A stretch of 64,000 nucleotides of DNA from assembly GCA_947626985.1 (NCBI GenBank), contig CANQUG010000003.1, forward strand, positions 62,001 to 126,000. The letters run 5' to 3'. The DNA comes from an uncultured Lachnospiraceae bacterium (GTDB taxonomy: Bacteria > Bacillota > Clostridia > Lachnospirales > Lachnospiraceae). This document shows positions 25,888 to 51,525 of this stretch, in pieces (the first letter of the stretch is position 1; the number at the start of each line of letters is the position of its first letter). The translations under genes and the position numbers were made by a program. The notes beneath the pieces were generated by a model. That model was given only the letters and a program-made list of their open reading frames with translations, had not been told where the DNA came from and did no database searches.

Positions 25888-26077
25888 CGGACGCAGGCGG
25901 GGGCGGGCTTCCTGTCTGTTGACGGCGCAACACTCCGCCGAACTAACCGCCAACTGCGGCTAAGGCGCTCAGGAAGAGCCTTCGCGCCTAAGTCTCCGTA
26001 GGCGGTGGATTTCGTCTCCGCTAAAACCGCGCCCGAACGGTCTGCCAGACAGGAAGCCCGCCCCCGCCTGCTGTGTA
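25888..26077. ncRNA. 190-bp structured element, copy 1
   Basis: Perfect inverted repeats of 26 bp (25893-25918 and 26046-26071) close a 127-nt interior that holds several shorter hairpins, such as CCGC 25935-25938 with GCGG 25956-25959, and AGGCG 25963-25967 with CGCCT 25985-25989. A second copy lies at 51336-51525 in the same orientation. Base changes between the copies are compensated in the stem and at two internal pairs, which argues for a selected structure. The interior contains no ORF. I cannot name an RNA family; a non-coding RNA or a small non-autonomous mobile element are both possible. The remainder of 25727-26423 holds no supported gene. Confidence 0.65.
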
Positions 26078-51335: not shown

Positions 51336-51525
51336 CGGACGCAGGCAAGCCTGTGCTTCCTGTCTGTTGACGGCGCAACACTCCGGCGAACTAACCGCCA
51401 ACTCCGGCTAGGACGCTCAGGAAGAGCCTTCGCGCCCAAGTCTCCGTAAGCGGTGGATTTCGCCTCCGCTAAAACCGCGCCCAAACGGTCTGCCAGACAG
51501 GAAGCACAGGCTTGTCTGCTGTGTA
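51336..51525. ncRNA. 190-bp structured element, copy 2
   Basis: This is the same length and orientation as copy 1 at 25888-26077. The closing arms are 51341-51366 and 51494-51519, pairing over 26 bp with one G-T wobble. Six stem positions differ from copy 1 on each arm, and all remain paired. Two internal pairs (51386 with 51404; 51411 with 51437) also change on both sides. It lies between araD and the thioesterase gene. No ORF of its own is credible. Confidence 0.65.

What the first reader, a model, noticed from the sequence alone, without database searches (positions are those of the whole stretch)
25888..26077. Structured 190-bp element with compensated base changes (copy 1)
A 26-bp terminal stem closes a 127-nt interior. 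Compared with the copy at 51336-51525, six stem pairs are changed on both arms, yet both stems pair over all 26 positions. Inside, C25938-G25956 becomes G-C in the other copy, and A25963-T25989 becomes G-C. At least eight compensatory changes between only two copies is strong evidence that base pairing is under selection. The interior sequence is more than 90 percent conserved. The element carries no ORF and is in an intergenic region after the MoxR promoter. I cannot match it to a named RNA family.
Basis: seen in the sequence. Interest (0 to 1): 0.87.

Follow-up and report, generated by a model that had tools for sequence, protein, structure and literature searches.

The report
Mobile hairpin repeat of gut bacteria
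The 190-base element is one of more than thirty copies of a spreading non-coding DNA hairpin in a gut bacterium and its relatives; its centre keeps a folded shape, while its outer arms appear to be kept matching largely by DNA copying rather than by an RNA job.

Summary
But these are two of 33 strong matches in this genome. The family is patchy in Lachnospiraceae: 12 of 150 genomes, one per genus, own included. Every genome matched in wider samples belongs to the same family. It matched nothing in Rfam, plasmids, phages or viral contigs. The inner core is truly structured: 24 of 36 pairs change on both sides over 44 sequences, far above shuffled and slid controls; wobble pairs favour the minus strand. 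The arms behave differently. They are 18-99 bp long, copy-specific, and outside this genome show no clear wobble bias. Between two sister species they changed at the same insertions, often in matched blocks: 15 double changes, 1.4 expected. That fits DNA template switching at least as well as selection on an RNA stem. Gene orientation is random; neither enzyme family tested (Y1 transposase, reverse transcriptase) tracks it. Best reading: a REP/MITE-like non-autonomous mobile hairpin, enzyme unknown.

The parts
25888..26077 (-). Copy 1 of the hairpin element (minus strand = strand inferred to fold)
   Evidence: 33 strong matches in the genome; core model R1 match 25913-26049 on -, 142 bits
25893..25918 (.). 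Left arm of terminal stem, copy 1 (copy-specific sequence)
   Evidence: arm covariation over 27 copies
26046..26071 (.). Right arm of terminal stem, copy 1
25888..25892 (+). Unpaired end CGGAC (mostly CGGAC or CGTAC in this genome) at the foot of the hairpin
   Evidence: G[GT]AC at this foot in 38 of 89 other elements, at the mirrored foot in 5 of 89
26072..26077 (+). Other unpaired end, TGTGTA or close to it; similarity between copies continues about 20 nt further out in this genome
25919..26045 (-). Structured core: a rod of short covarying helices with conserved internal loops
25958..25994 (-). Strongly conserved apical hairpin, with tandem G.A/A.G positions next to its tip
   Evidence: the two non-canonical positions are G.A in 43 of 44 and A.G in 44 of 44 sequences
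51336..51525 (-). Copy 2 of the same element
   Evidence: (R1 match 51361-51497 on -, 137.8 bits)
51341..51366 (.). Left arm, copy 2
51494..51519 (.). Right arm, copy 2

Best explanation
The element is a copy of a high-copy, intergenic, non-coding, non-autonomous mobile hairpin family of Lachnospiraceae. SHOWN: unlike ends (CGGAC on one side, TGTGTA on the other), copy-specific complementary arms, and a core whose helices covary. Copies sit at different places in related species, exchange cores, and are lost by deletions that leave an arm stub. SUPPORTED: the arms stay complementary because replication copies one arm from the other (quasi-palindrome template switching), so arm 'compensation' is largely mutational. 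INFERRED: the core, folded in single-stranded form (most likely the minus strand, as DNA or as RNA), is what an unknown trans-acting enzyme recognises to move the element. No host-regulatory role is needed to explain the data.
For: 33 strong places in the genome and 38 model matches in another, nearly closed genome. Patchy: 13 of 60 genus genomes and 12 of 150 family genomes, own included in both. Gene orientation is neutral in 119 of 168 places that had ORFs within 1.5 kb on both sides: upstream 57/62, downstream 63/56 same/opposite strand. At one shared site (secA and hpf neighbours, names recalled) two sister species carry a copy, a third genus member has a 228-bp spacer with no core match, and another has a different copy in the opposite orientation. 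Core covariation: 94.6% of cells paired; 178 double-change cells against 43 shuffled and 8-26 slid. Minus-strand wobble in the core: G.U 107, A.C 20, other non-pairs 65. Arms: divergence 22.5% against 9.7% for the core among 27 copies, yet 98.1% of arm cells pair. At 18 orthologous sites: 478 arm pairs unchanged, 24 one-sided, 13 WC-to-WC doubles, 2 other doubles; 1.4 doubles expected if independent. L244/L337: six doubles within 7 nt and no one-sided change; the new block was not found in another copy in 2.1 Mb of held loci. Core swapped to the other subfamily at one site (L224/L302). Deletions leaving stubs.
Against: No enzyme found. No clean pre-insertion site at base resolution: the two best presence/absence cases are deletions, and the site lacking L226 (no core match in L362) lies in diverged flank. 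In this genome's own arms minus-strand wobble is favoured (G.U 12, A.C 2), as RNA selection would predict; outside it the counts are 72 to 61. Without two majority G.U columns the core bias falls to 37 to 20, and the sequences are related. One-sided arm changes (24) outnumber double ones (15), as ordinary mutation plus later repair or selection would also give. At L244/L337 the core differs too (13 of 120), so conversion from an unseen copy cannot be excluded; only part of the sister genome was held.
Confidence: 0.6

Rival explanations
1. A functional structured RNA (trans-acting or cis-regulatory) of the host, with both stem and core kept by selection on RNA pairing.
For: Strong core covariation, near-invariant internal-loop bases and strand-specific wobble; arm covariation in 27 copies, with minus-strand wobble 12 to 2; good folding. 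Five promoter-like sites in the copy-2 spacer where 1.5 are expected, one weak one (51694-51665) reading on the minus strand towards the element.
Against: Orientation neutral to genes; tens of copies; absent from most relatives; arms up to 99 bp, 71 bp of pure Watson-Crick pairs in L135, longer than an RNA stem seems to need; no promoter-like site in the copy-1 spacer (consensus scans only).
Confidence: 0.18
2. An ordinary MITE: terminal inverted repeats kept equal by a DDE transposase that copies whole elements.
For: Terminal inverted repeats, dispersed non-coding copies, intergenic sites.
Against: No target-site duplication: mean longest match 2.85, mispaired control 3.36. The two ends differ. 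Arms change on both sides in place at one insertion, which whole-element copying does not explain. The interior is a conserved fold.
Confidence: 0.08
3. A giant REP-type element moved by a Y1/HUH (RAYT-like) transposase that recognises a tetranucleotide at the hairpin foot.
For: G[GT]AC at one hairpin foot (38 of 89) and rarely at the other (5 of 89); head-to-head pairs; no target-site duplication; single-strand fold.
Against: Y1_Tnp not found in 6 of 15 element-bearing genomes including this one; no core match near 8 Y1 genes of the larger or divergent type, and 4 of 6 surroundings scanned have other palindromes of their own; the foot motif would mark the plus strand while the core wobble marks the minus strand; 146-306 bp against 20-65 nt.
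Confidence: 0.14

Closest known systems
REP elements (GTAG- and CGTC-tagged; PMC3733652 abstract and passages seen, PMC6006769 passages seen)
   Same: High-copy extragenic palindromes, tagged at one end by an unpaired motif, head-to-head pairs; the CGTC class is reported to lack a dedicated transposase
   Different: 20-65 nt with a simple stem; here 146-306 bp with a covarying multi-helix core and copy-specific arms; tag GGAC/GTAC; other taxa
bcr1-bcr18 repeats of the Bacillus cereus group (passages of PMC3446304 and PMC6542083 seen; original papers not seen)
   Same: 100-400 bp intergenic repeats, bcr1 up to 130 copies, limited to one taxon, mobile features, some with conserved secondary structure
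   Different: Other taxon; [quoted passage not shown] no sequence comparison was made here
Quasi-palindrome / template-switch mutation in hairpins (PMC8794818: abstract, opening text and one section seen)
   Same: Matched multibase changes in both arms of a hairpin by one replication event
   Different: Described there in RNA genes; here seen at orthologous insertions of a mobile repeat with very long arms
MITEs (recalled)
   Same: Short, non-autonomous, inverted-repeat, intergenic
   Different: No target-site duplication, unlike ends, structured core

Membership tests
REP element | 20-65 nt imperfect hairpin | tested here: not met
   146-306 bp from arm to arm in 120 elements with a detected stem, of 133 candidates
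REP element | GTAG (or CGTC) unpaired tag at one end | tested here: not met
   G[GT]AC at one foot, 38 of 89; GTCCG unpaired on the other strand
REP element | Extragenic, high copy, often head-to-head pairs | tested here: met
   10 of 119 places overlapped a mechanical ORF of 90 aa or more; pairs
REP element | RAYT (Y1) gene flanked by the repeat | tested here: not met
   No core-model match near 8 Y1 genes; no Y1_Tnp in 6 of 15 bearing genomes
MITE | Target-site duplication | tested here: not met
   27 copies, no excess over mispaired control
MITE | Related autonomous transposon with the same ends | tested here: inconclusive
   No family-like recurrence among nearest ORFs of 119 places, largest cluster 6 proteins; gene content of whole genomes not compared
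Rfam family | Gathering-score match | tested here: not met
   (only an RNase P gene elsewhere on L118); at E-value level two weak matches far below cut-off or none
Retroelement / ORF-less group II intron | Reverse transcriptase available | tested here: not met
   RVT_1 not found in 4 of 15 bearing genomes, one with at least 19 copies; assembly gaps possible
bcr-type repeat | Sequence or motif kinship with bcr1-18 | not tested
   no bcr sequence was fetched
Structured RNA | Covariation above controls | tested here: met
   core; arms too, but there a DNA cause is likely
Structured RNA | Transcript | not testable with these tools
   no RNA-seq

The most novel reading that the evidence does not exclude
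A new class of mobile element in which a folded single strand, with a conserved non-canonical core, is the mobile unit and is recognised by an enzyme family not yet known, while its arms are rewritten in place by template switching, so the element carries a copy-specific, self-templated stem.
Probability: 0.3. Interest if true: 0.85.

Novelty: new variant of a known kind. Interest (0 to 1): 0.6.

Why it matters
If right, this is a wide and, as far as my searches of held papers and Rfam show, unnamed repeat family in gut bacteria (pattern matches include records titled Blautia, Dorea and Roseburia); many matches sit at contig ends, so it probably breaks assemblies. More generally it is a natural test case for a warning: compensatory changes, the standard proof of a functional RNA stem, can be produced by DNA replication itself. 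Here arms and core sit in one molecule, so mutation-made and selection-made covariation can be compared directly.

Tried and rejected
Rfam at gathering and E-value level: nothing for the element. Viral contigs by exact pattern, plasmids and phages by blastn with copy 1: none. Reverse transcriptase and Y1 transposase as movers: not found in several bearing genomes. Y1 genes of the larger or divergent type and their surroundings: no core match in 8, other palindromes in 4 of 6. Loss of SbcCD as the condition for long palindromes: SbcD above cut-off in 29 of 34 genomes, below it or missing in 3 of 18 bearers and 2 of 16 non-bearers. Replication-strand bias in G144: folded strand on leading 15, lagging 23 (my count); 27 of the 38 lie on the contig's plus strand, unexplained. 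Autonomous version between paired copies: only metabolic-looking genes (names recalled) or short degenerate ORFs. Recurrent neighbour genes: none beyond clusters of 6. Junction tandem repeats as a general mark: strong in this genome (left end 11 of 26, right end 2 of 27, control 17 of 480) but 1 of 38 at each end elsewhere (control 3 of 335). Rows dropped before counts: of 118 cores 69 were non-redundant and 44 kept for A1; the other 25 belong to other subfamilies or carry insertions.

Full report
CHECK. Copy 2 has one G.T among its 26 arm pairs. The addition is scale: a search of the same genome finds 33 strong places, one weak one and two self-matches of the arms. No Rfam family matches.

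ANATOMY. Aligned copies share a start that is mostly CG[GT]AC, an end like TGTGTA, and a core of about 130 nt. Between ends and core lie arms that differ from copy to copy but remain complementary. My script found a stem in 120 of 133 distinct candidates, 18 to 99 bp long, allowing G.T and some mismatches. The longest arm of Watson-Crick pairs only is 71 bp (L135). The titles of the 108 stretches are Lachnospiraceae genera, Lachnospiraceae bins, or bins named only Clostridia, Clostridiales or Eubacteriales.

CORE. Mutual information on 44 cores (11 of them from this genome; 25 of 69 non-redundant cores of other types were left out) gave one nested rod of short helices. Counted on the tool's own alignment, the 36-pair structure pairs in 94.6% of cells. 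24 pairs change on both sides (shuffles 15.1; slides 4-13), and there are 178 double-change cells (43; 8-26). The structure was derived from the same sequences, which favours it against slides, but the margin is very large. Between helices sit nearly fixed non-canonical positions, among them tandem G.A and A.G near the tip. Read on the minus strand, wobble cells outnumber A.C cells 107 to 20, or 37 to 20 without two columns that are G.U by majority. This points, moderately, to the minus strand as the folded one.

ARMS. In 27 copies of this genome arms diverge 22.5% and cores 9.7%, yet 98.1% of arm cells pair and 14 of 24 arm pairs change on both sides. Two processes could do this: selection on pairing, or copying of one arm from the other. 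In 114 distinct elements, 20 of them fully Watson-Crick, the other arm cells are G.T 63, A.C 84 and other 71 in plus orientation, so neither strand shows the wobble excess seen in the core. This genome alone leans to the minus strand (12 to 2).

The sharper test uses two sister species, G144 and G225, which share many insertions. At 18 orthologous sites (of 19 pairs run; [quoted passage not shown] Independent change predicts 1.4 doubles. Two of the sites contribute only 5 and 13 comparable pairs. Of the 15 doubles, 10 come from two sites. In L244/L337 six lie within 7 nt with no one-sided change, although the core there also differs at 13 of 120. Six of the 13 Watson-Crick doubles are transversions that cannot pass through a wobble pair. 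The new L337 block was not seen in another copy among 2.1 Mb of held loci, which cover only part of G225. Template switching in hairpins makes such multibase matched changes (PMC8794818, abstract and one section seen). Conversion between copies is also real: at the site beside secA and hpf the two species share flank and outer arms but carry cores of different subfamilies.

MOBILITY. Occurrence is patchy: 13 of 60 genomes of the genus, 12 of 150 of the family, 3 of 196 of the order and 2 of 299 of the phylum, always including the own genome. Every matched genome lies in the same family; the larger searches used stricter filters and a model of one subfamily, so distant forms may be missed. G144 has 38 model matches, some as close head-to-head pairs. 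At the site beside secA and hpf (names recalled from the protein sequences), spacers are 471 bp in G144 and 550 in G225, both with the element; 228 in G228 and 2176 in G226, neither with a core match; and 503 in G227, with a different copy in the opposite orientation. Gene orientation is neutral over 119 of 168 places (mechanical ORFs; some places counted twice because loci overlap). There is no target-site duplication in 27 copies. Copies are also lost: an inner-core deletion (L234/L368) and two losses that leave arm stubs. In this genome the CGGAC junction is often repeated in tandem next to the element (11 of 26; control 17 of 480), but this is rare elsewhere.

MECHANISM AND LIMITS. No mover was found; only two enzyme families were tested. 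Y1 transposases were not found in 6 of 15 bearers including this genome, reverse transcriptases not in 4 of 15, and SbcD presence does not track the element. I therefore infer, without proof, a trans-acting enzyme that reads the folded strand. Whether that strand acts as DNA or RNA is open. Random orientation, high copy number and very long arms make a host RNA role less likely, but do not exclude it; promoter-like sites were absent around copy 1 and in excess around copy 2.

COMPARISON. It works most like REP and bcr repeats but fails defining features of REPs (size, tag, linked transposase) and of MITEs (target duplication). Searches of the held papers listed no description of such a repeat in Lachnospiraceae; of the microbiome RNA survey PMC8040213 I saw only passages, and its supplements could not be read. 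I file it as a new variant of the palindromic mobile-repeat kind.

Noticed in passing
L271, L272, L275, L276 (unnamed Lachnospiraceae genomes): Y1 (RAYT-like) transposase genes with palindromes nearby that carry a GGGAC motif and look like REP elements of their own; L273 and L277 did not show one.
   Followed up: partly
L004, L013, L015, L017, L018, L023, L027 (left), L019, L027, L028 (right), own genome: Short tandem repeats whose unit is flank plus the outermost bases of the element, mostly on the CGGAC side.
   Followed up: partly
own-genome copies, about 20 nt beyond the TGTGTA end: Conserved outer tail resembling TCGAATCCTCCATGGGAATT next to many copies; the element may extend further, or a second small repeat adjoins it.
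   Followed up: no
L392:4100-5570: Two inverted, similar distant relatives of the element about 1.2 kb apart upstream of a prfB-like gene (name recalled), with only short ORFs between them.
   Followed up: partly
L326 (secA-hpf spacer of G228): A REP-like palindrome sits in the same spacer where relatives carry the element.
   Followed up: no
L118:1-296: Bacterial class A RNase P RNA gene cut by the contig start.
   Followed up: no
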